64,000 bases of DNA from Herminiimonas sp. GTDB lineage: Bacteria; Pseudomonadota; Gammaproteobacteria; Burkholderiales; Burkholderiaceae. Positions 6,902 to 17,988 of this stretch are shown here, one piece after another; positions within the stretch are counted from its first letter, which is position 1, and each line of letters begins with the position of its first letter. A program made the translations under genes and the position numbers. The DNA lies in NCBI RefSeq assembly GCF_030655415.1, contig NZ_JAURVN010000004.1, positions 496,001-560,000 of the forward strand, read 5' to 3'. The notes below the pieces were generated by a model. It saw only the letters and a program-made list of their open reading frames with translations, did not search any database and had not been told where the DNA came from.

Positions 6902-8131
6902 ATGTTAATCGAAATATCCGTAAGCAATTTTCGTTCTTTTAAGGACAAGCAGACGTTTTCCATGGTTGCCGCACCGCGCCTGCAAAAAAAAGAAAATCAT
7001 TTCCCAGCTGGTGCGCTTGGCGAAAAATTGCCAAACCTGTTGAAAGTAGTAGCTATATACGGACCAAATGCTTCCGGCAAATCAAATCTTTTATTAGCAT
7101 TAGACGCTTTTCGCGTGTTCGCGCACCAGAGGCCGTCTTCTACGCCAACTATTTTGCCAGTGCAACCTTTCCGATTTGACACGGCATTACAGGATAAGCC
7201 GAGTCGATTTGAGATTCATTTCATACAAGATCACATAAGATATCAATTTGAGTTTGCAGCAACTCAATCCAGAATCCATGAAGAAAGACTGATTTGCTAT
7301 CCTCGAGGCAAGGAAACTTTGCTATATAGCCGAACTTGGAATGGCAAACACGACATTTATGATTTTGGATTGCTCGAAGGTACGAAAGAACTCCATGCAA
7401 CTTGGGCAAACCTAACTAGCTCACAAGTTTTGTTTATTACACAAGCTGTGGCAAACAGCAGCGATGATCTTCTTCAACTTCGTTCTCCACTGAAGTGGCT
7501 GCAGGCCGGATTTACTGTGGTTTCAAGTGAAATGAGGCCTTGGGCCAACGCTTCGCAGCAAGTTGCAAAGAGAGCGCCTGAACTTATGAATCGACTGGCG
7601 ACTTTCCTCCAGAAGGTGGATGTTCCCGTACTCGGCATTCGTTTTGACAAAAAATCACCTGATGGCGGGATGTTAGATTCGAACGATGATGCGCCAACGA
7701 CGACAACGTTAACGCACAATTCCTCGTTGGGAGCAGCTGATTTTGATTTTGACGAAGAATCGAGCGGCACGAAAAATCTCATCGGTTTTTGGCTTCCGTG
7801 GATGCTTGTCCAGGACAACCATGCAAAAGAATATCGAGTATTGGCAGTTGACGAATTGGATAGCAGCTTACATCCCAAGATTGTTGCAAGTTTAGTTTCG
7901 CAGCACATCAAGTCAGGGAATAGCACGCAATTAATTTTTACAACGCATGATACGCATTTGATGGACACCAAACTGATGCGAAGAGATCAGTTTTGGCTAA
8001 CTGAACGCAACTCTGAAGGTGCTACACAGCTGCGTTCAATACATGATTTTGTCGGCAGAGATAATGAGGACATTGAAAAGCGATACTATGAAGGTAGGTA
8101 CCGCTCCCTTCCGCTTTTAGGAGAGTCTTGA
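6902..8131 (+). CDS. AAA family ATPase, RloA/AbiLi-like (predicted defence)
   Basis: A 409-residue ATPase of the AAA_15/AAA_21 (OLD/SMC-like) type. It opens with LIEISVSNFRSFKD, the typical beta-strand start. Walker A GPNASGKS is at residues 54-61, Walker B with a D-loop (VLAVDELDSSLHP) around 311-323, a TTHD switch near 347, and a C-terminal YYEGRYRSLPLL motif seen in RloA-type proteins. Such ATPases pair with RloB or related Toprim-like nucleases in abortive-infection systems (AbiL, PARIS). The stop overlaps the start of the RloB gene by one base, implying translational coupling. Codon and base use are more AT-rich than neighbours. The defence role is inferred from the pairing and island location. 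Confidence 0.85.
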   Translation: MLIEISVSNFRSFKDKQTFSMVAAPRLQKKENHFPAGALGEKLPNLLKVVAIYGPNASGKSNLLLALDAFRVFAHQRPSSTPTILPVQPFRFDTALQDKPSRFEIHFIQDHIRYQFEFAATQSRIHEERLICYPRGKETLLYSRTWNGKHDIYDFGLLEGTKELHATWANLTSSQVLFITQAVANSSDDLLQLRSPLKWLQAGFTVVSSEMRPWANASQQVAKRAPELMNRLATFLQKVDVPVLGIRFDKKSPDGGMLDSNDDAPTTTTLTHNSSLGAADFDFDEESSGTKNLIGFWLPWMLVQDNHAKEYRVLAVDELDSSLHPKIVASLVSQHIKSGNSTQLIFTTHDTHLMDTKLMRRDQFWLTERNSEGATQLRSIHDFVGRDNEDIEKRYYEGRYRSLPLLGES

Positions 8132-8769
8132 TGGCGCGCAATGCAGACTCCTTTAAAAGGATAGGACAAAAATTTAAGCCGCAGCCTAAAGTCCTCCTGA
8201 TCTGTGAAGATTTGAAATCAGGTAAACAATACTTTGAAGAAGCACGTGCTCATTTTAGAGTTGATGTGGAGGTTGAAGTTCTGCACTGTGGCCGAACTGA
8301 TCCAAAAGGGATTGTAGAAGCCGCTTTAAAACGGTCCAAGGCTTATGAACAGATTTTCTGCATTATTGATCGTGACAGCCACCAAAATTTCGATGAAGCG
8401 TTGGTATTATCTGAGTCTAAAGAGAACGTCAATGTAATCGCCTCATATCCTTGCTTCGAATATTGGCTATTGATCCACTTCGGACACATTTGCAAACCAT
8501 ATTCCTCTGTAGGTAATCATAGCGCGGCGGATCGTTTGATTGCCGATCTTCGAAAGCATCCCGGAATGGCGGAGTACGCCAAGGGCAATATAAGAAATTT
8601 GTTTTCATCATTTCTCGGCGAGCCGTTTAATCAAGCGCGTAAAACTTCTCCAATAATTCTGAAGGCAGCTATCGAAAATGGCGAAATGAATCCGAGTACG
8701 GGCATTCATGAAGTGTTCGATGCATTTGAAGCCTTAGCCCAACCTATTCAGGTTCAAGATAAGAAGTGA
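8131..8769 (+). CDS. RloB-like protein (AbiLii-like, Toprim-related)
   Basis: A 212-residue RloB domain protein. Visible family motifs: VLLICED (Glu 26) followed by KQYF, an acidic DxD-type motif IIDRDSH (Asp 80, Asp 82), and SYPCFEYWLLIHF (107-117), the hallmark of RloB/AbiLii. The arrangement Glu...DxD resembles the metal site of Toprim nucleases, so a nuclease effector is likely but unproven. The start is the ATG at 8131, overlapping the ATPase stop as TGATG, with AGGAG just upstream. The pair matches the AbiLi/AbiLii arrangement, where the ATPase senses infection and the partner is toxic. Confidence 0.85.
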   Translation: MARNADSFKRIGQKFKPQPKVLLICEDLKSGKQYFEEARAHFRVDVEVEVLHCGRTDPKGIVEAALKRSKAYEQIFCIIDRDSHQNFDEALVLSESKENVNVIASYPCFEYWLLIHFGHICKPYSSVGNHSAADRLIADLRKHPGMAEYAKGNIRNLFSSFLGEPFNQARKTSPIILKAAIENGEMNPSTGIHEVFDAFEALAQPIQVQDKK

Positions 8770-9214: not shown

Positions 9215-9289
9215 CTCGCCGTAGTTCAATGGATAGAACGAGTGCCTCCTAAGCGCTAGATACAGGTCCGATTCCTGTCGGCGGGACCA
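9215..9289 (+). tRNA. tRNA-Arg(CCU)
   Basis: Full cloverleaf can be drawn. Acceptor stem CTCGCCG / CGGCGGG (one T-G pair), D stem GTTC / GAAC, anticodon stem AGTGC / GCGCT with loop CTCCTAA (anticodon CCT), T stem ACAGG / CCTGT with loop TCCGATT, discriminator A and encoded CCA. The 5' 15 bases are duplicated at 6577, marking an insertion site. Confidence 0.93.
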
Positions 9290-9530: not shown

Positions 9531-11600
9531 CTATTTTGATGAAAGCCGACGCTGCCCTGCAAGTTGCGTTACCACTTGCACCAAACGATCAATTTCCTCG
9601 AAGGTGTTGTAGAACGCGAGTGAAGGACGCACGGTTGTCTCTACGCCAAAGCGGCGCAAAATCGGTTGTGCGCAGTGATGGCCGGTACGTACTGCGATAC
9701 CTTCTTCATTGAGCGCCTTGCCCACTTCTTCCGTCGTATATCCCTGCAAGACAAAAGACATGACGCTGGCTTTGTCTGCGGCTGTACCGATCAAACGCAC
9801 ACCAGTAATCGCAGCTAGCTTTTGCATTCCGTAGACCAGCAGCTCATGCTCGTAGCGGGCGATGTTTTCGATACCGACTTTGGTGACGTAATCGATTGCT
9901 GCGCCCAAACCAACTGCATCGGCGATGTTACCGGTGCCGGCTTCGAACTTGTTCGGAATCGGCTGGAACACTGTCTTCTCAAAAGTGACGTCGGCGATCA
10001 TGTTGCCGCCGCCTTGCCATGGTGGCATGTCTTCCAGCACTTCGCGTTTGCCCCAGACCACGCCGATACCGGTTGGGCCGAATACTTTGTGACCTGAGAA
10101 AACGAAGAAGTCGGCACCGATGTCTTGCACGTCGATCCGCATGTGCGAAATCGATTGCGCACCATCGACCAAAGCCTTGGCCCCAGCACGCTGTGCCAGT
10201 GCAACGATTTCTTTCACCGGGACGACCGTACCCAATGCGTTCGACACTTGCGTGACGGCGACGATTTTAGTGCGGTCGTTGAGCAGTTTCTTGTATTCAT
10301 CGAGCAAAACCTGTCCCGAATCGTCCACTGGAATCACGCGCAGCTTGGCACCTTTGGCTGCGGCGAGTTGCTGCCACGGCACGATGTTGGCGTGGTGTTC
10401 AAGATTGGAAACGATAATCTCGTCGCCCTCACCCACATGCTGTCCGCCCCAACTTTTGGCAACCAGATTGATCGCCTCAGTGGTGCCGCGTACGAAGATA
10501 ACTTCGTTCACGTCAGGTGCGTTGATGAAGTTCTTCACACGTAGCCGTGCACCTTCATACGCATCGGTGGCGCGTGCTGCAAGTTCATGTGCGGCGCGAT
10601 GGATATTGGAATTTTCGTGTGCGTAAAAATACGCAATGCGGTCGATCACCGATTGCGGTTTGTGCGTGGTGGCGGCATTGTCGAACCAAACCAGTTGCTT
10701 GCCATTGACGCGCTCTTGCAATACCGGAAAATCGCGACGCACTGCATGCACATCGAATGCAGGATGACGACTTTGATCTGCATTTGAAATCGGCGTGCTT
10801 TGCACATGACCAGCATGACCATGCGGGTGCGGTTTGGCTGGTGTGACATAACCGCTAGGCAGCACCACTGAATCGACAAAGTAATACTGCGGTGCTGTCG
10901 ATGGTTTAGCCGGACCTTGCGCACTCGCCTTGCTCGCATTCGACGAACTTGGCGAGAGCAAATTCTGCACATCATTACCAGCCGGATTTGCAAAAGGCTG
11001 ATCCGCCAATTGATCAAGAATATTGCCTACCGCTGGCGTATTCCCCGCGCGTCCGGGTAGCGATGGCTGCCCGTGTTGCAGAAAATAATACGGCGAGCTT
11101 GCACCAGCATTCGATGGCAAGTCGACAGGCGCAGAGGAAGCTGGCTGCGCAAACTGACTTGAACCAGCTTGCTGACCACCCGCTGCTTGCGCCTGCGGCA
11201 CACCAAGAACTGCACCACCCAGACGCGGCTCATAAGCCGGCAAGGTACTGATCAAGGTATCGGGTACGCCGTTAGGCGCAGTCGCGTGCGGCAATAATGC
11301 GGGCGCACGGTTTGCCAATGAGGGCAATTGCGTAGGCGAAGCCGGCAACAGATTCGTGCCGGGTATCTGTCCTTGCGGGATAGGCGTGCCGGGTATCGAT
11401 GGGCCAAATCCAGCAGGACTGGCCAAGGGCGAACCCGGCGGCGCGATATTCACCGGCGCTTGTACACCTGGCAATACGCCACTGCTTTGATTCGGCAGCG
11501 CCGAAAAAAATGCAGTCGCCATGCGTGCAAGCAAAGCCGGATCGATAGGCGCCTCGCCCGCTTGAGGAATACTCACGGGATTGGATGGTAAGTTACTCAT
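9531..11600 (-). CDS. Family 2A encapsulin cargo: SufS-type cysteine desulfurase with disordered N-terminus
   Basis: 689 residues, against about 405-410 for ordinary SufS. Residues 1 to about 280 are Pro/Ala/Gly/Ser/Gln-rich and disordered-looking; from about 280 (DVHAVRRDFPVL) the complete type II cysteine desulfurase follows. It has NAATTHKPQ, the PLP lysine in SGHKVFGPTGIG (about Lys 505) and the catalytic cysteine in TGHHCAQP (about Cys 643). The enzyme takes sulfur from cysteine as a persulfide. A long N-terminal extension is the defining trait of the family 2A encapsulin cargo, which uses it to enter the shell. Two similar islands, PYYFLQHG and QYYFVDS (about 171 and 238), stand out in the extension. 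The shell gene lies 8 bases upstream. Confidence 0.92.
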   Translation of the reverse strand: MSNLPSNPVSIPQAGEAPIDPALLARMATAFFSALPNQSSGVLPGVQAPVNIAPPGSPLASPAGFGPSIPGTPIPQGQIPGTNLLPASPTQLPSLANRAPALLPHATAPNGVPDTLISTLPAYEPRLGGAVLGVPQAQAAGGQQAGSSQFAQPASSAPVDLPSNAGASSPYYFLQHGQPSLPGRAGNTPAVGNILDQLADQPFANPAGNDVQNLLSPSSSNASKASAQGPAKPSTAPQYYFVDSVVLPSGYVTPAKPHPHGHAGHVQSTPISNADQSRHPAFDVHAVRRDFPVLQERVNGKQLVWFDNAATTHKPQSVIDRIAYFYAHENSNIHRAAHELAARATDAYEGARLRVKNFINAPDVNEVIFVRGTTEAINLVAKSWGGQHVGEGDEIIVSNLEHHANIVPWQQLAAAKGAKLRVIPVDDSGQVLLDEYKKLLNDRTKIVAVTQVSNALGTVVPVKEIVALAQRAGAKALVDGAQSISHMRIDVQDIGADFFVFSGHKVFGPTGIGVVWGKREVLEDMPPWQGGGNMIADVTFEKTVFQPIPNKFEAGTGNIADAVGLGAAIDYVTKVGIENIARYEHELLVYGMQKLAAITGVRLIGTAADKASVMSFVLQGYTTEEVGKALNEEGIAVRTGHHCAQPILRRFGVETTVRPSLAFYNTFEEIDRLVQVVTQLAGQRRLSSK

Positions 11601-11608
11601 AGTCGCGC

Positions 11609-12538
11609 TTAACGGTAAGTATCTGGGTACTCGTGATATTTGTTGACCTCAACATCGTCCAGCACAGCCAGCGCATCAGGCGTCAATACGGCAAGCGAGC
11701 AGTACAGTGAAATCAGATACGAAGCGATCGCCTGGTTGTTGATGCCCATGAAGCGCACCGACAAACCTGGGCTTTGTTCGCCAGGCAAACCTGGTTGGAA
11801 CAGACCGACCACGCCTTGGCGTTTGTCGCCTACGCGCAGCAAAATGATTTTGCTCTTGCCATCTGCGACGGGAATTTTGTCCGATGGAATCAATGGAATA
11901 CCGCGCCATGTGATGAATTGCGAGCCGAACAAACTGATGGTCGGTGGTGGCGTACCGCGACGCGTCGCTTCACGACCAAAGGCGGCAATCGCCAGCGGAT
12001 GCGCCAGGAAGAATGCTGGTTCTTTCCAGACTTTAGTCAGCAATTCATCCAGATCGTCAGGAGTTGGCGCGCCGGTCAAAGGGAAAATACGTTGCTCTTC
12101 CGCGACTTGTGCCAGCAGGCCGTAGTCAGGATTGTTGATGAGTTCGCTCTCCTGATTTTCTTTGATCGTTTCGATTGTCAGACGCAGTTGTTCTTTGATC
12201 TGATCGTGCGGGCTGCTATACAGATCGGAGATGCGTGTGTGCACATCAAGGATGGTGCTGACAGCATTCAGGAAATGTTCACGCGGATTTTCTTCGTAAT
12301 CAACGAAGGTGCGCGGCAGTTGATTTTCTTCTTCACGCGACGTGCAAGTAACCTTGATCGACTCTGGATTCTTGACTTGATTGACGCGATAGATACCGGC
12401 TTCGACAGGCACCCATTGCAACAGATGTGTCAGCCAGCGCGGCGAGATGATCGATAACTGCGGAACGGTTTTAGTTGCGTTGGCTAACTGACGCGCTGCG
12501 TTGTCGCCAAGGGCTAATTGCGGAGAAGTATCTGCCAT
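11609..12538 (-). CDS. Family 2A encapsulin shell protein (SrpI-like)
   Basis: 309-residue HK97-fold shell protein of the SrpI type. The N-terminus (PQLALGDNAARQLANATKT, then ISPRWLTHLLQWVPVEAGIYRVN) and the C-terminal region with SLYCSLAVLTPDALAVLDDVEVNKYHEYP are recognisable family 2A sequence. Shells of this kind self-assemble into icosahedral nanocompartments that enclose a cysteine desulfurase, as described for a Synechococcus homologue induced by sulfur starvation. The gene sits 8 bases before the cargo gene and downstream of an XRE regulator and a rhodanese, all on one strand. Length is normal. Confidence 0.93.
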   Translation of the reverse strand: MADTSPQLALGDNAARQLANATKTVPQLSIISPRWLTHLLQWVPVEAGIYRVNQVKNPESIKVTCTSREEENQLPRTFVDYEENPREHFLNAVSTILDVHTRISDLYSSPHDQIKEQLRLTIETIKENQESELINNPDYGLLAQVAEEQRIFPLTGAPTPDDLDELLTKVWKEPAFFLAHPLAIAAFGREATRRGTPPPTISLFGSQFITWRGIPLIPSDKIPVADGKSKIILLRVGDKRQGVVGLFQPGLPGEQSPGLSVRFMGINNQAIASYLISLYCSLAVLTPDALAVLDDVEVNKYHEYPDTYR

Positions 12539-12633
12539 GAGAATTCCAGTTGTAAATTAAGAGAGTGATGAAACTTGAATGAATGATGAAACGGCAATGT
12601 CAGCGCGGAGTGTCGACTGGAATTGCATGACGC

Positions 12634-12903
12634 TCAACATGCTATAGACGCCAAGTTGAGTTTATAAACAGCCTGCTGTCCGCGATGACGTTCGCACTGC
12701 GCCAGCAGATCTGAAATTTTTAAACCGAGTGCGCTGGCGAGTTTGTCCAAGGTGATCAGCGATGGGATGACCTTGCCGCGCTCTACCTCGCCCACATAGG
12801 AGCGATTGAGTTGCGCCTTCTCGGCCAATATCTCTTGCGACCAACCTTGCGCTTCGCGCAATTGCCGCACCGTGACACCAAAACTGGCACACAACTTACT
12901 CAT
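12634..12903 (-). CDS. XRE-family helix-turn-helix regulator
   Basis: 89-residue protein consisting almost only of a Cro/CI-type HTH (residues about 8-65: LREAQGWSQEILAEKAQLNRSYVGEVERGKVIPSLITLDKLASALGLKISDLL). There is no sensor domain; a Cys lies near residue 78 and another close to the C-terminus. It lies between the rhodanese (39 bases) and encapsulin shell (95 bases) genes on the same strand, so it probably belongs to the operon and may regulate it. The ligand or signal is not evident. Confidence 0.88.
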   Translation of the reverse strand: MSKLCASFGVTVRQLREAQGWSQEILAEKAQLNRSYVGEVERGKVIPSLITLDKLASALGLKISDLLAQCERHRGQQAVYKLNLASIAC

Positions 12904-12942
12904 CTTTTTACAAACGCATTCGTATCAATTGCTTAGAGAAAA

Positions 12943-13392
12943 TCAGGCTTGTATCCAAGGCAGCTTATGAAAGCGCCAGCCATCGGCAGAGCCGCGATGC
13001 TGCTTATCGTTGAGCTCGCCTTCGAAGCCTTCCAGCACATTGAATACGCTGGTGAAGCCGGCTTTGCTGGCAGCGTCTAACGCCAGCGCAGAACGCTTAC
13101 CGCTACGGCACAACAACAGAATGGTTTTGTCCTTGCCGGTCTTCGCTTCCAGCTCACGGACAAAACGTGGGTTGCGCGTCAGACTGGTGCCGGTGGCCCA
13201 TGGCACGTGCACGCTATCCGGTACATAGCCGACGAATGCGCGTTCTTCTGCAGTGCGCACGTCGACCAGCACGGCTTGTCCACTTGAAAAAAGAGCCCAT
13301 GCAGCTTGTGGCGTTACGCCGTCTGCAGACAACACACTTGATGCATCGCTGCCATCCTGCGTGATTTGAATATTTGGAAGAGATGCACCCAT
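12943..13392 (-). CDS. rhodanese-domain sulfurtransferase, first gene of encapsulin operon
   Basis: 149-residue single-domain rhodanese. Motifs: LVDVRTAEERAFVGYVPDSVHVPW (CH2-type start) and the active-site loop LCRSGKRS with Cys 95, which would carry the persulfide. It has no signal peptide and should be cytoplasmic. It starts after a strong AGGAG and heads the run rhodanese - XRE - shell - cargo. A persulfide carrier next to a compartmentalised cysteine desulfurase suggests it hands on the sulfane sulfur. That partnership is an inference from the operon. Confidence 0.88.
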   Translation of the reverse strand: MGASLPNIQITQDGSDASSVLSADGVTPQAAWALFSSGQAVLVDVRTAEERAFVGYVPDSVHVPWATGTSLTRNPRFVRELEAKTGKDKTILLLCRSGKRSALALDAASKAGFTSVFNVLEGFEGELNDKQHRGSADGWRFHKLPWIQA

Positions 13393-13954
13393 TTCGTTCT
13401 CCTAGGCATGGACGCCGATGGTGTGACATCGGCATCAATAAAATCAGTGCAACCAGAATATAAGAAAGCCTATAGCCAACAAACGAATAAAAACGCGCTT
13501 GAATATCTGAATTTTGTTACTGACTTCGGAAGGATATTTGAGGCATCAAACGCATATAGATATACGTTTGATGAAGACACTTGAATCGTGTCGCGGATGT
13601 CTATGACCATCTTCGTGCAGCGTGTCTCGCGCACAGATTAAAGCTTGATTTGGATTTGCTAATTCAAGGGAAATGGCAAGGCGAACCATCGCGAAGCGCT
13701 GTAATAAAAATAATACGACCGCGCAATCATGCTCAATCGTTACGCAACCTTAATGCGTTTTGTTACAAAGCTCACACTTTCTTAACCAGTTTGCTGCGCA
13801 CTTGTCGCTAAAGATACGGTCTAGAGCCGTACGCCGCTCAGATGCGCAACCATCATCGAAGTTGGGTGCGCTACCGCACCGAGCAGCTATGTATTTCGCG
13901 GCTAAGCTCTGAACGTACCGTCAAAAAAATACCATTAACAATAACGGAGTCATC
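13393..13954. other. intergenic region between encapsulin operon and lipoprotein gene
   Basis: 562 bases upstream of two divergent genes. Short open frames here (13366-13584, 13581-13811) show no ribosome binding site, domain or family-like composition and I do not call them. The only clear structure is the dyad at 13544-13573. Promoters for both flanking genes should lie here, but none is strong enough to name. Confidence 0.5.
13544..13573. promoter_or_regulatory. 30-bp dyad, possible operator
   Basis: Arms CATCAAACG (13544-13552) and CGTTTGATG (13565-13573) are perfect, and the centre ATAT-AG-ATAT continues the symmetry. It lies about 150 bases upstream of the rhodanese start. There is no T-run, so an operator is more likely than a terminator. 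Confidence 0.45.
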
Positions 13955-14572: not shown

Positions 14573-15268
14573 TTACACCACTTTTATATTCAATTCGCCC
14601 AAGCCTTCAATTTTGCATTCCATTAGATCGCCCTTCTTCACTGCCGATACACCGGCTGGCGTTCCAGTCATGATCAAGTCGCCGGGTTGCAGCGTGAAAT
14701 ATTGCGACAGATACGCAATCATTTCTTCTATACTCCAGATCAATTTATCGACAGTGCTTTGTTGTTTCACCTGGCCATTGACGCTTAGCTGAATCGCACG
14801 GTTTCCCGGTGCGCCAATCTCTGCTGCCGGATGAAGCGGACCGATGGGCGCAGATTGTTCAAACGCCTTGCCGGTATCCCACGGACGGCGCAGGCTTTTT
14901 GCTTCAGCCTGCACATCGCGGCGCGTCATATCCAAACCGATCGCATAACCCCAGACGTATTGCATAGCATCTGCAGCCGCGATGTTTTTACCGGCCTTGC
15001 CTATGGCCGCAACCAGCTCAAGCTCGTATTGAAAATCTTCCGTCATCTCCGGATAAGGCAGTTCTGCGACTGCACCGTATCCGATTGGGAAAACCGCATC
15101 CGCCGGCTTCATGAAAAAGAACGGTGGCTCCCTGCCCGTGCCGCCCATTTCAATCGCATGATCGACATAGTTACGTCCGACGCAATAAATTCTATGCACA
15201 GGGAAGAATGCATCGCTGCCCACAACAGGCACTGCGGCTGTCGGCACAGCGGGAATAACAAACTGCAT
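14573..15268 (-). CDS. fumarylacetoacetate hydrolase family enzyme (fumarylpyruvate hydrolase-like)
   Basis: 231-residue FAH-fold hydrolase that would cleave a C-C bond in an acylpyruvate. The metal ligands are visible: ExE in FQYELELVA and the Asp in GLDMTRRD. IYCVGRNYVDHAIEMG at the start and the C-terminal PGDLIMTGTPAGV loop complete the family pattern. Its size and N-terminus (VGSDAFFPVHRIYCVGRNY) resemble fumarylpyruvate hydrolases of gentisate catabolism, but no other gentisate genes are nearby, so the substrate is open. The ATG at 15268 follows GAGGAG. A long inverted repeat sits just upstream. Confidence 0.85.
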   Translation of the reverse strand: MQFVIPAVPTAAVPVVGSDAFFPVHRIYCVGRNYVDHAIEMGGTGREPPFFFMKPADAVFPIGYGAVAELPYPEMTEDFQYELELVAAIGKAGKNIAAADAMQYVWGYAIGLDMTRRDVQAEAKSLRRPWDTGKAFEQSAPIGPLHPAAEIGAPGNRAIQLSVNGQVKQQSTVDKLIWSIEEMIAYLSQYFTLQPGDLIMTGTPAGVSAVKKGDLMECKIEGLGELNIKVV

Positions 15269-15285
15269 GACAACTCCTCGTTGTG

Positions 15286-15321
15286 AAAACCATAGATTCG
15301 TTTTTCTCAATCTATGGTTTT
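15286..15321. promoter_or_regulatory. 13-bp perfect inverted repeat upstream of FAH-family gene
   Basis: AAAACCATAGATT (15286-15298) and AATCTATGGTTTT (15309-15321) are separated by 10 bases. It lies 18-53 bases before the FAH-family start, within the leader or promoter. It may be an operator or a leader hairpin. The remainder of 15322-15580 has a -10-like TATAAT at 15508-15513 for the divergent GntR gene and nothing else I can name. Confidence 0.5.
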
Positions 15322-15580
15322 ATAAAAATAATTCATTAATTCAGTGAAAATGCGCTTCGCAGAATTATGCCATCGGCGCTAGCTCCACGTTATGCGTGAA
15401 ATACTCACTTGATCGCAGGCGCTGTTTTTGCTTGTAATGATTTTGTTTATATTTACTTTGTATCAAGCACCCTAAACGGATTATTCCAGGGCAGCGCAGG
15501 CGGATCGTATAATCAACAAATAATTAGCAAACCGCTACTAAATAGTGCGGGGCAAAAAGCGTTATCTCAAAGGTAGAGCG

Positions 15581-16279
15581 ATGATCACAGAAGAACAAGT
15601 AAAAGCATTGCAGTCTGAAATGGAAGGCAATGGCGAGAACCAGGCACAGATGGCTTATCGCATCCTGGAAGAAATGATCGTCACGCTCAAACTTCCGCCA
15701 GGCAGCAAGATTTCTGAAAAAGCCTTGAACCGTTCGCTAGGTTTTGGCCGCACACCTTTGCGTGAAGCGCTGCAGCGTCTAGCTATCGAAGGCAACGTAA
15801 AAATCATGCCGCGCTCTGGTGTGATCGTTTCTGAAATCGATTTAGCTGATCAATTGAACATGATCGAAGTCCGACGCGAACTAGAAAAAATCATCGCCGG
15901 TCGCGCTGCACGTCTGGCGATGGAAGATCAGCGTGCGGTTTTTCTGAAGCTGGCGGAAGGCTTTGACCGCGCTGCGGAAACCAATGACGGTGCGATCTTT
16001 ATCGAAACCGATAGAGACTTCAACAGTCTCTGCATAGAGACTGCGCAAAACAAATACGTGTCCTACGCCATCGGCCCGATCGAAGCGCAAACCCGTCGTT
16101 TCTGGTATTTGCATTTCAAACGCTTCGGCGACTTGGCACGTGTATCAAATTTACATGCACGTATCGCACGCGCGATTGCCGCCAACGATGAAGCTGGTGC
16201 GCGTGAAGCGTCCGATCGCTTGATCGATTACGTTGAAGAATACACGCGCAAAACGCTGCAATTCATGGGCGGGCTGTAA
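15581..16279 (+). CDS. GntR-family (FCD domain) transcriptional regulator
   Basis: 232-residue FadR-subfamily regulator. The N-terminal winged helix includes LNRSLGFGRTPLREALQRLAIEGNVKIMPRSGVIVSEID (about residues 45-85) and is followed by an all-helical FCD ligand domain (EVRRELEKIIAGRAARLA, then DRDFNSLCIETAQNKYV). The FCD family usually binds small carboxylates. The start ATG at 15581 has AGGTAGAG upstream; an in-frame GTG at 15545 is less likely. It is divergent from the FAH-family gene and convergent with a gamma-glutamyltransferase-like gene, and could control either. Confidence 0.88.
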   Translation: MITEEQVKALQSEMEGNGENQAQMAYRILEEMIVTLKLPPGSKISEKALNRSLGFGRTPLREALQRLAIEGNVKIMPRSGVIVSEIDLADQLNMIEVRRELEKIIAGRAARLAMEDQRAVFLKLAEGFDRAAETNDGAIFIETDRDFNSLCIETAQNKYVSYAIGPIEAQTRRFWYLHFKRFGDLARVSNLHARIARAIAANDEAGAREASDRLIDYVEEYTRKTLQFMGGL

Positions 16280-16295
16280 AACAAATAAACGAAAA

Positions 16296-16319
16296 AACGG
16301 CGACATCACTGTCGCCGTA
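16296..16319 (-). terminator. intrinsic terminator
   Basis: Stem ACGGCGACA / TGTCGCCGT with loop TCAC. On the minus strand a T-run follows, so it serves the gamma-glutamyltransferase-like gene; it also lies just after the GntR gene. Confidence 0.8.
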
Positions 16320-16392
16320 AACTTGCTTCCAGAAACAGGATCAAACGGGATCAGTCGTTGGACGTTTATTTTCAAATCGACTTCCCCATCGA

Positions 16393-17988
16393 TCAGAAAC
16401 CCGCAACAATCCCATTGCTGCGCGGATCAAAACCGCCTTCGAAGATACCATCAGGATTGCGCACAATCGCGCCAGCATGGCCGACCATTTCGTCAAACGC
16501 AGCGATCACATCAACCTCATGACCCAGCGCCTGCAAGCCAGCCACGATCTCTGGCGAAAAACGATTTTCAACTTTAAGTGAATCCGAGCTCTGGCCCCAG
16601 GTACGACCAAGTAACCAGCGCGGAGCGGTGATCGCCTGCTGCACCGCCTGACCGAATACAGCGTAACGCGTGAATACCGCAGCTTGCGTTTGCGGCTGAC
16701 CGTCACCACCCATCGTGCCATACACCATCGTGCGACCATCGTTGAAACGAGCGAGCGCAGGATTCAATGTGTGGAACGGTTTTTTACCCGGCAACAATGC
16801 GTTCAAATGATTAGGATCCAGCGAGAAAGAACAGCCACGGTTTTGCCAATTGATGCCGGTTTTTTCTAGCACAACACCGCTACCGAACTCGTGATAAATA
16901 CTTTGAATGAAAGACACTGCGCGTCCTTCACCATCGATCACGCCCATCCAGATTGTGTCGCCGGGACCTTTGCCTTGCCCCCACGGCAAAGCCTGATTGA
17001 CGCGTATCGCCGCAACATAAGGCGCCAGAAATTCGTCGGTCAAACATTCTTGCGGATCAATCGTCATGTACGCAGGATCGGTCACGTACTTGTCGCGAAT
17101 CGCAAACGCCTGCTTGGTCGCTTCGACGACCAGATGCACATATTCCAAACTGTCTGCTTCGTACTGCGCCAGATTCAAGCGATCCAGAATCCCGATGATG
17201 ATCAGCGACACTACGCCTTGCGTTGGCGGCGCCGAGTTATAGACATCGCCCAGACTGTGCTTCAGATGAACCGGCGCAACCGTACGCGCGCGATAAGCAT
17301 TCAGATCCTGCAATGTAATCGGACTACTGACAGCCGCCAGATCCGCGGCAATGTGTTGTGCGAGTTCACCACGATAAAAACTGTCTAGGCCGTCGCGTGC
17401 CAACGTACGCAAAGTTGTCGCCATGCGTGCTTGCTTGAAGCGAGTACCTGCAAGTGGCGCTTTTCCTTTTACCAAAAACGTATTGGCAAATCCCGGCTGC
17501 GCCAGCAACTCTGCATGTTTAGCTGATGTGCTTGCATACTGCGATGGCGTCACTGGTATGCCGTCTTCTGCGTAGTGAATAGCGTCGGCCAGCAAACGTG
17601 GCAACGGCAACGTGCCGCCCCAACTTCCCGCCAGATCCAAAGCTTGTTGCCAGCCGCCTATAGTGCCGGCAGTGGTATTCGCAGCCAACGGCCCGCGCAC
17701 AGGAATCGCATCCAGCTTGCGGCTTGCATAAAAATCCGTAGACACATCAGCACCAGCAACACCGCAAGCCTCGATCGCCAACACTGGCTTACCAGGTTCA
17801 GACATCACCCAAAAACTGTCGCCGCCTATCCCGTTCATATGCGGATAAACAACTGCAATCGTCGATGCCGCGGCAATCATAGCCTCAAGCGCATTGCCGC
17901 CTTCTTGCAATACCGACTGTGCAGCCTGAGCAGCAAGAGAATGCGGCGCAACAGCCATGCCGCGTGTTGCGTAGGTAGTATTTTGCAT
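16393..17988 (-). CDS. gamma-glutamyltransferase family protein (cytoplasmic type)
   Basis: 531-residue member of the Ntn-hydrolase family that self-cleaves into two subunits. The large-subunit start GMAVAPHSLAAQAAQSVLQEGGNALEAMIAA and GIGGDSFW are typical. The cleavage site and nucleophile fall in GDTIWMGVID (Thr 345), and the C-terminal MGGDGQPQTQ corresponds to the conserved small-subunit loop. It has no signal peptide, unlike periplasmic GGT, and belongs to the divergent group also annotated as acylase-like enzymes; the substrate cannot be read from sequence. It is followed, upstream on the same strand, by an OFA-type transporter gene. Confidence 0.85.
   Translation of the reverse strand: MQNTTYATRGMAVAPHSLAAQAAQSVLQEGGNALEAMIAAASTIAVVYPHMNGIGGDSFWVMSEPGKPVLAIEACGVAGADVSTDFYASRKLDAIPVRGPLAANTTAGTIGGWQQALDLAGSWGGTLPLPRLLADAIHYAEDGIPVTPSQYASTSAKHAELLAQPGFANTFLVKGKAPLAGTRFKQARMATTLRTLARDGLDSFYRGELAQHIAADLAAVSSPITLQDLNAYRARTVAPVHLKHSLGDVYNSAPPTQGVVSLIIIGILDRLNLAQYEADSLEYVHLVVEATKQAFAIRDKYVTDPAYMTIDPQECLTDEFLAPYVAAIRVNQALPWGQGKGPGDTIWMGVIDGEGRAVSFIQSIYHEFGSGVVLEKTGINWQNRGCSFSLDPNHLNALLPGKKPFHTLNPALARFNDGRTMVYGTMGGDGQPQTQAAVFTRYAVFGQAVQQAITAPRWLLGRTWGQSSDSLKVENRFSPEIVAGLQALGHEVDVIAAFDEMVGHAGAIVRNPDGIFEGGFDPRSNGIVAGF

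What the first reader, a model, noticed from the sequence alone, without database searches (positions are those of the whole stretch)
9531..13392. Family 2A encapsulin operon with XRE regulator and rhodanese
Four genes read leftwards with short gaps: rhodanese, XRE HTH, SrpI-like shell, and SufS-type cysteine desulfurase with a 280-residue disordered N-terminus. Seen: the motifs and order. Known: family 2A shells enclose desulfurases and were linked to sulfur starvation in a cyanobacterium. Inferred: the XRE protein controls the operon and the rhodanese takes the persulfide from the compartment. The in-operon XRE regulator is worth attention.
Basis: partly seen in the sequence, partly recalled or inferred. 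Interest (0 to 1): 0.85.

Follow-up and report, generated by a model that had tools for sequence, protein, structure and literature searches.

The report
Sulfur nanocompartment operon with timing switch
This is a known kind of bacterial protein shell that encloses a sulfur-releasing enzyme, but its DNA control signals suggest that a small regulator, of the type that times restriction enzymes, decides when the shell is made.

Summary
In detail: window 9531-13392 (minus strand) encodes rhodanese, an 89-aa XRE protein, a family 2A encapsulin shell and its desulfurase cargo. The operon kind is known.

(1) The usual Burkholderiales operon has a further gene: a serine acetyltransferase follows the rhodanese in 75 of 78 loci. 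The window and four genomes of genus Herminiimonas lack it; a fifth keeps it.

(2) Footprints suggest two promoters. P1, before rhodanese, has a conserved box; its matrix also finds the promoter of the best sulfate-binding-protein gene in 12 of 12 genomes, suggesting a CysB-type sulfur activator. P2, between XRE and shell, has a 21-bp element in 103 of 105 XRE-bearing loci and 0 of 14 without XRE. It abuts a -35 box, with a -10 box 17-18 bp on in 101 of 105. A related palindrome lies at P1 of 76 of 103 XRE-bearing loci. The XRE protein's best solved relatives are restriction-modification controller proteins (C.AhdI, C.BclI).

I propose a controller-type switch that damps P1 and turns on shell and cargo. 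XRE binding and its sign are inferred. The P1 association is not significant after phylogenetic pairing, and the window's own P1 operator is weak.

The parts
13481..13493 (-). P1 activator-type box TTTTTATTCGTTT upstream of rhodanese
   Evidence: At least 11 of 13 letters in 73 of 109 deduplicated loci, 1.3 expected from shuffles, 1 on the opposite strand; window site located
13457..13462 (-). candidate -10 of P1 (TATATT)
   Evidence: conserved block in six Herminiimonas-type loci; a TAnAnT -10 is conserved about 20 bp after the box in relatives
13468..13480 (-). weak operator-like sequence GTTGGCTATAGGC in the P1 spacer
   Evidence: score 12.0 against shuffle maximum 10.9, at a position not shared with the other Herminiimonas loci; doubtful
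12943..13392 (-). rhodanese, 149 aa, with loop CRSGKRS (read by eye)
   Evidence: PF00581 53.5 bits; PDB rhodanese 8w14 184.5 bits
12634..12903 (-). XRE (HTH_3) protein, 89 aa, no second domain found; resembles restriction-modification controller proteins
   Evidence: Control_protein 61.3 bits; C.AhdI 43.3 bits, C.BclI 40.6 bits
12634..12654 (-). operator-like element TTGGCGTCTATAGCATGTTGA at the 3' end of XRE
   Evidence: 103 of 105 XRE-bearing loci score above 8, 0 of 14 without XRE; wholly non-coding in 25 loci; exact form once per genome, in the operon, in 14 of 15 genomes
12632..12637 (-). -35 box of internal promoter P2 (TTGAGC)
   Evidence: coordinates
12609..12614 (-). -10 box of P2 (GACACT), 17 bp from the -35
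   Evidence.A.A.T at spacer 17 in 82 and at 18 in 19 of 105 loci, none counted twice; 0-1 loci at the 14 other spacers tested
11609..12538 (-). family 2A encapsulin shell protein, 309 aa
   Evidence: NF041162 527.5 bits; PF19307 343 bits; PDB 8t6r 557 bits, SrpI 6x8m 500 bits
9531..11600 (-). cargo cysteine desulfurase, 689 aa, SufS type
   Evidence: NF041166 938 bits; PDB 8kg1 634 bits
10761..11600 (-). N-terminal extension of the desulfurase, about 280 residues
   Evidence: SufS profile starts at residue 286; loading motifs of the relative are named in PMC8049743
9362..9391 (-). terminator-like hairpin after the operon, 12 pairs and T tail
   Evidence: the number of such sites in the region is not above shuffles

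Best explanation
A family 2A encapsulin operon: the SrpI-type shell encloses a SufS-type desulfurase that takes sulfur from cysteine, and the rhodanese is a likely sulfur acceptor. Shown by sequence: the genes, the absence of the serine acetyltransferase gene that relatives carry, two conserved promoter-like regions, and an operator-like element whose exact form is confined to this operon in nearly all genomes searched. Inferred: a CysB-like sulfur activator switches on P1 (rhodanese, acetyltransferase where present, XRE). The small XRE protein, working by concentration like a restriction-modification controller protein, binds the palindrome. At P1 of relatives the palindrome lies on or after the start site and would repress. 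At P2 it is centred near -42.5 beside weak -35 and -10 boxes and would activate shell and cargo. The result would be enzymes first, compartment later, with negative feedback on P1. In the window itself the P2 part is intact and the P1 operator is doubtful.
For: Gene identity. P1 box: 73 of 109 loci with at least 11 of 13 letters against 1.3 expected. A matrix made from encapsulin P1 promoters finds the promoter of the best sulfate-binding-protein gene in 12 of 12 genomes, same strand, about 150-230 bp before the family match, scores 7.1-30.0 against at most -5.3 in three shuffles per locus. Outside P1, 20 positions of 2.46 million reach 7. I examined ten of the fifteen strongest of these: five precede sulfur-linked genes (OAH/OAS sulfhydrylase, two 3-mercaptopyruvate sulfurtransferase-like proteins, TauD, a luciferase-like monooxygenase). 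P2 element: 103 of 105 XRE-bearing loci against 0 of 14; non-coding yet conserved in 25; -10 at 17 or 18 bp in 101 of 105. Specificity: the exact 16-mer occurs once, in the operon, in 14 of 15 genomes. Over 195 family genomes 30 of 33 matches of the slightly wider pattern lie in the operon, in 29 of the 53 shell-bearing genomes. A phylum sample (11 of 17 shell-bearing genomes read): all 5 loci with XRE have the element, none of the 6 without (one of the five, L260, is probably the same genome as L072). Likeness to controller proteins. C-boxes are described as GACTtatAGTC with outer TG...CA (PMC3115060, passage); the operator here is TG..GGCTATMGCC..CA.
Against: No binding or expression data. 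With phylogenetic pairing, loss of XRE and loss of the P1 operator agree in 2.2 of 7 pairs, oppose in 0.2 and do not differ in 4.6: not significant. L021 lacks XRE but keeps a strong P1 operator. The P2 element abuts the XRE gene, so its loss with XRE is partly trivial, and in 69 of 105 loci it is also coding. L147 and L150 have an XRE match but no P2 element. 27 of 103 XRE-bearing loci show no P1 operator above threshold, and its position varies. The 12 cysI promoters score only -24.9 to 1.4 with the P1 matrix, and of the 11 second sulfate-binding-protein copies only one has a hit of 7 or more just upstream. Five of the ten off-operon sites examined do not precede a recognised sulfur gene. 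The exact P1 13-mer occurs nowhere else in 5 Herminiimonas genomes and near matches are at control level. G176 carries only a one-mismatch form of the P2 16-mer and has a second one elsewhere. The sigma-70 scanner did not report P2. P2 has one palindrome, not the tandem pair of C-boxes.
Confidence: 0.55

Rival explanations
1. The XRE protein binds the element but only represses: it blocks the -35 of P2 or stalls polymerase coming from P1 at the end of its own gene, as C.Kpn2I does inside its own gene. Shell and cargo are then kept low until XRE is diluted or inactivated.
For: The element overlaps the XRE coding end in 69 of 105 loci and adjoins the -35. C.Kpn2I binds inside its own gene and blocks elongation, and inhibits a promoter by masking the -35 (PMC6237814, abstract). 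At P1 the operator lies on or after the start site in 52 of the 54 loci measured.
Against: The P2 hexamers are weak (GACACT-like, not found by the sigma-70 scanner), and the palindrome is centred about 42.5 bp upstream of the expected start with nearly fixed spacing, the usual place of activators that touch sigma (recalled).
Confidence: 0.22
2. The 21-bp element and the P1 palindrome are bound by some other factor, or the P2 element acts in RNA; the XRE protein merely travels with the operon.
For: Co-occurrence with XRE at P1 is not significant after phylogenetic pairing, and L021 has the P1 operator without XRE.
Against: The exact element is confined to this operon in 14 of 15 genomes, which fits a dedicated local regulator; the DNA-reading part of XRE is highly conserved (N33 96%, R34 100%, S35 96%, G38 and E39 98% of 105); the operator resembles a C-box.
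Confidence: 0.13
3. An ordinary single-promoter operon: the CysB-like activator at P1 drives everything, and P2 and XRE matter little.
For: XRE presence changes 8 times on the shell tree while shell and cargo stayed; operons without it must work.
Against: Conserved -35 and -10 spacing at P2 in 101 of 105 loci.
Confidence: 0.1

Closest known systems
Family 2A cysteine-desulfurase encapsulin (SrpI/CyD, Synechococcus elongatus; PMC8049743, passages seen)
   Same: Shell family, SufS-type cargo with long N-terminal extension, LAR..A..FFS and SPYYFL motifs, sulfur context
   Different: Here rhodanese and XRE precede the shell, and an operator-like element and promoter lie between XRE and shell; the words 'regulator', 'transcription factor' and 'rhodanese' do not occur in that main text
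Family 2A operons surveyed in PMC8346489 (passages seen)
   Same: Rhodanese and serine acetyltransferase are named there as the most enriched accessory genes
   Different: 'XRE' and 'HTH' do not occur in that main text (supplements not read); the window lineage lacks the acetyltransferase
Controller (C) proteins of restriction-modification systems: C.AhdI, C.BclI, C.Kpn2I (PMC3115060 and PMC8053105 passages; PMC6237814 outline and abstract)
   Same: Small XRE protein; palindrome around TAT with outer TG...CA; sites near a -35 and near a start site; a concentration-timed switch in the known cases
   Different: No methyltransferase or endonuclease among the neighbours; a single palindrome rather than the tandem OL/OR; two separate promoters of a metabolic operon

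Membership tests
Family 2A encapsulin | shell scores to the family 2A model above cut-off | tested here: met
   NF041162 527.5 bits, cut-off 380; it also passes the 2B model (418.9, cut-off 400), but Pfam finds no cNMP domain in its 309 aa
Family 2A encapsulin | desulfurase cargo with N-terminal loading domain | tested here: met
   NF041166 938 bits over residues 15-680; motifs present
Family 2A encapsulin | HK97-fold icosahedral shell assembly | not testable with these tools
   close solved relatives 8t6r and 6x8m; no assembly data for this protein; no structure job was run
CysB-type sulfur regulon | promoter signal shared with sulfate uptake genes | tested here: met
   12 of 12 best sulfate-binding-protein promoters hit by the P1 matrix; 1 of 11 second copies
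CysB-type sulfur regulon | signal shared with cysI | tested here: inconclusive
   12 cysI loci score -24.9 to 1.4; 11 of 12 beat their own three shuffles but none reaches 7
CysB-type sulfur regulon | binding by CysB or SsuR | not testable with these tools
   no betaproteobacterial consensus was found in the listings
Restriction-modification controller protein | sequence kinship to C proteins | tested here: met
   C.AhdI 43.3 and C.BclI 40.6 bits are the two best of 20 PDB hits; PADLOC Control_protein 61.3 bits is the best of 15 there; NCBIfam's best is an antitoxin model below cut-off (44.9 of 71.65)
Restriction-modification controller protein | tandem palindromic operators OL and OR | tested here: not met
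   one palindrome found per promoter
Restriction-modification controller protein | encoded with methyltransferase and endonuclease | tested here: not met
   neighbours are rhodanese, acetyltransferase, shell and desulfurase

The most novel reading that the evidence does not exclude
A restriction-modification-type controller switch has been captured by a sulfur nanocompartment operon: sulfur starvation starts P1, the controller builds up, shuts P1 down and fires P2, so that the compartment and its cargo are made in a delayed, self-limiting burst.
Probability: 0.4. Interest if true: 0.75.

Novelty: new variant of a known kind. Interest (0 to 1): 0.6.

Why it matters
How cells decide when to build encapsulins is little studied, as far as I know. 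The sites found here (P1 box, P2 operator, -35 and -10) are short, conserved and directly testable by footprinting and reporters. They tie a desulfurase nanocompartment to sulfate uptake by promoter sequence and suggest that a timing device known from restriction-modification systems also schedules the assembly of a protein organelle.

Tried and rejected
The exact P1 13-mer was tried as a regulon-wide box in 5 Herminiimonas genomes and found only at this operon. With one mismatch, counts in 7 genomes were at control level. A 14-mer variant occurred once in 8 of 9 other genomes and not in the ninth. So plain patterns say nothing about a regulon; the 72-nt matrix did.

An AATTCCAGT...ACTGGAATT inverted repeat in the window's XRE-shell gap (read by eye) was dropped: it is not kept in the other Herminiimonas. 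A GATGCCGATG...CATCGGCGTC inverted repeat upstream of the window's rhodanese is not shared with them either and is left unexplained.

My first reckoning of the P1 operator position was off by one base; one search gives the corrected figures used here. The count '104 of 105' for the P2 element includes one locus, L147, with a poor score; one search gives 103 of 105.

Literature searches for a betaproteobacterial CysB or SsuR consensus gave none in their listings. 'encapsulin' with 'XRE family' and 'operon' gave 0 papers; the listings showed none on regulation of an encapsulin operon. Most subscription papers are not in that library, including a report on elemental-sulfur storage by family 2A encapsulins, which I only recall.

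No structure prediction was run: solved relatives made it unnecessary for the shell, and a monomer model would not show DNA binding.
Full report
What is there. The shell is a family 2A encapsulin (NCBIfam 527.5 bits, cut-off 380; PDB 8t6r 557 bits; SrpI 6x8m 500 bits) and the desulfurase is its cargo by the dedicated model (938 bits, cut-off 800). The enzyme's RTGHHCAQP and SGHK motifs and the rhodanese CRSGKRS loop are intact; these are my readings of the translations. The operon kind is therefore known.

Relatives. No whole genome is held for the window. The shell's closest relatives are in genus Herminiimonas (97% in G176, 95% in H. contaminans). I took 80 loci from named genomes (the best 80 of at least 590) and 40 of the 53 shell-bearing genomes among 195 of the family. 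Of 78 loci (window included) with both rhodanese and shell, 75 carry a serine acetyltransferase gene after the rhodanese (EpsC model 165 and 162 bits in two of them, cut-off 150); it lies between rhodanese and XRE in the 68 that also have XRE. The three without it are the window, L001 and L071. XRE is found in 71 of the 78. L032, L047 and L075 were left out because no rhodanese was found in the stretch held. In genus Herminiimonas 5 of 13 genomes have the shell: four lack the acetyltransferase in the operon (L001, L117, L118, L119) and one, G084 (L120), keeps it. On a shell-DNA tree the acetyltransferase changes twice and XRE eight times, so the window's loss belongs to a small clade within the genus. 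H. contaminans keeps another long acetyltransferase (57% identity, G001 C16:71469, L083); similar second copies occur in two genomes that kept the operon copy (G003, G004), so it does not look like a replacement.

Promoter P1. Upstream of rhodanese all six Herminiimonas-type loci share a block with TTTTTATTCGTTT and TTCTTATATTC. Across 109 deduplicated loci, 73 match at least 11 of 13 letters; 1.3 are expected from shuffles, and 1 does so on the opposite strand. The wider logo (72 loci) has a second TAT.CGTTTTT-like stretch upstream and a TAnAnT -10 about 20 bp after the box, with no TTGACA: an activator-type promoter. A 72-nt matrix from those promoters was run on loci of the sulfate-binding-protein gene, which were not used to make it. 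In 12 of 12 genomes the best copy has a hit on the gene's strand 150-230 bp before the family match, scores 7.1 to 30.0, against -5.3 or less in three shuffles each. Of the 11 second copies only L217 has such a hit just upstream; L209 and L214 have hits elsewhere in the stretch; four matches below the family cut-off were not scanned. cysI loci (12) score -24.9 to 1.4, 11 of them above their own shuffles; 13 other NIR_SIR loci are at control level. Over the operon loci the matrix gives 20 positions of 7 or more outside P1 in 2.46 million, and 103 of the 114 loci with a usable upstream region have one at P1, training loci included. I looked at the genes after ten of the fifteen strongest off-P1 sites (L153, L154, L156, without a located rhodanese, and L029, L034 were left out). 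Five are sulfur-linked: OAH/OAS sulfhydrylase, TauD, two 3-mercaptopyruvate sulfurtransferase-like proteins (below the model's cut-off), and a luciferase-like monooxygenase, whose sulfur link is a guess from kinship. Five are not clearly so: two sigma-54 activators divergent from the operon, OsmC, a serine hydrolase and one ORF without a match. P1 thus looks like part of a sulfur-assimilation regulon; naming CysB or SsuR is inference.

Promoter P2 and the operator. The gap between XRE and shell is 59-346 bp. A palindromic core TGGCTATAGCCA with up to 2 mismatches occurs 137 times in about 1.25 Mb of loci; 98 of these lie in just two places, upstream of rhodanese (40 sites in 38 of 114 loci) or at the XRE end/shell gap (58 of 105), whereas 12 shuffled palindromes gave 0-4 and 0-15 there. 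Refined, the gap element TTGRYGGCTATAGCMTGTTGA scores above 8 in 103 of 105 loci with XRE (all but L147 and L150) and in 0 of 14 without, whose best is -7.5. The P1 version exceeds the 95% shuffle value in 76 of 103 loci with XRE and 1 of 11 without (L021). The gap element lies wholly after the XRE stop codon in 25 loci, is cut by it in 11 and is coding in 69; it is well kept in all three groups, so it is kept as DNA. Its end TTGA is a -35 box.A.A.T follows at 17 bp in 82 loci and 18 bp in 19 others, and in 0-1 loci for the 14 other spacers tested. With a 17-bp spacer the palindrome is centred at about -42.5. At P1, in 54 loci with both box and operator, the centre falls at about +1 to +4 in 25, about +10 to +33 in 27 and upstream in 2, the window being one of these (with the -10 taken at a fixed distance from the box, which does not fit Herminiimonas exactly).

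Is the operator specific? In 15 genomes GGCTATAGCMTGTTGA occurs exactly once in 14, in this operon each time; G176 has one mismatch there, as the window does, and another one-mismatch site elsewhere; sites with 1-2 mismatches are otherwise near control numbers. In 195 family genomes GKCKATAGCMTGTTGA has 33 exact matches in 32 genomes, 30 of them in the operon (29 of 53 shell-bearing genomes, G023 twice) and 3 elsewhere (G040, G095, G115). In a phylum sample 17 of 398 genomes have a shell match; of the 11 that I read, the 5 loci with XRE have the element (19.5-41.1) and the 6 without do not (-4.0 to 4.0); one of the five, L260, is probably the genome of L072.

The regulator. XRE has 89 residues in 67 of 105 loci, one HTH domain and no other domain found. 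Its two best solved relatives are C.AhdI and C.BclI and its best PADLOC model is Control_protein. C-boxes are described as GACTtatAGTC with outer TG...CA (PMC3115060, passage); C proteins activate at low level and repress at high level (PMC8053105, passage); C.Kpn2I binds inside its own gene and acts as a roadblock (PMC6237814, abstract). The parallel in operator shape and size is close, but this protein is not in a restriction-modification system and the operator is single.

Weak points. After phylogenetic pairing the XRE/P1-operator association is not significant (7 pairs: 2.2 same way, 0.2 opposite, 4.6 no difference). The P2 element adjoins XRE, so joint loss is partly trivial. Activation rather than repression at P2 is inferred from geometry. 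Nothing here tests what the compartment does with the sulfur: transfer to the rhodanese (proposed in PMC8346489, passage) and storage as elemental sulfur (recalled, not read) both remain open.

Noticed in passing
window 6902-8769 (+): AAA ATPase plus RloB pair (PADLOC AbiLi 264 bits and AbiLii 68 bits), a likely phage-defence pair, beside tRNA-Arg(CCT) at 9215-9289; no homologue was seen in the 3 kb after the operon in H. contaminans L001.
   Followed up: partly
window 14573-17988: FAA hydrolase, GntR/FCD regulator and gamma-glutamyltranspeptidase upstream of the operon; the last two are shared with H. contaminans L001.
   Followed up: no
L039, L062, L063, L065, L137, L149, L152: A cysteine synthase (CysK-like) gene sits between rhodanese and serine acetyltransferase in these encapsulin operons.
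   Followed up: partly
L155 (G143): The shell match falls in two pieces, so the gene may be broken there; described only.
   Followed up: no
L031 and L036, about 170-220 bp upstream of rhodanese, opposite strand: A P1-like site also faces a divergent sigma-54-dependent activator gene next to the operon.
   Followed up: partly
G023 C150:15516 and 15935 (L137 region): Two copies of the operator element flank the XRE gene.
   Followed up: no
window 13411-13436 (-): Inverted repeat GATGCCGATG-TCACAC-CATCGGCGTC upstream of rhodanese, not shared with the other Herminiimonas loci.
   Followed up: no
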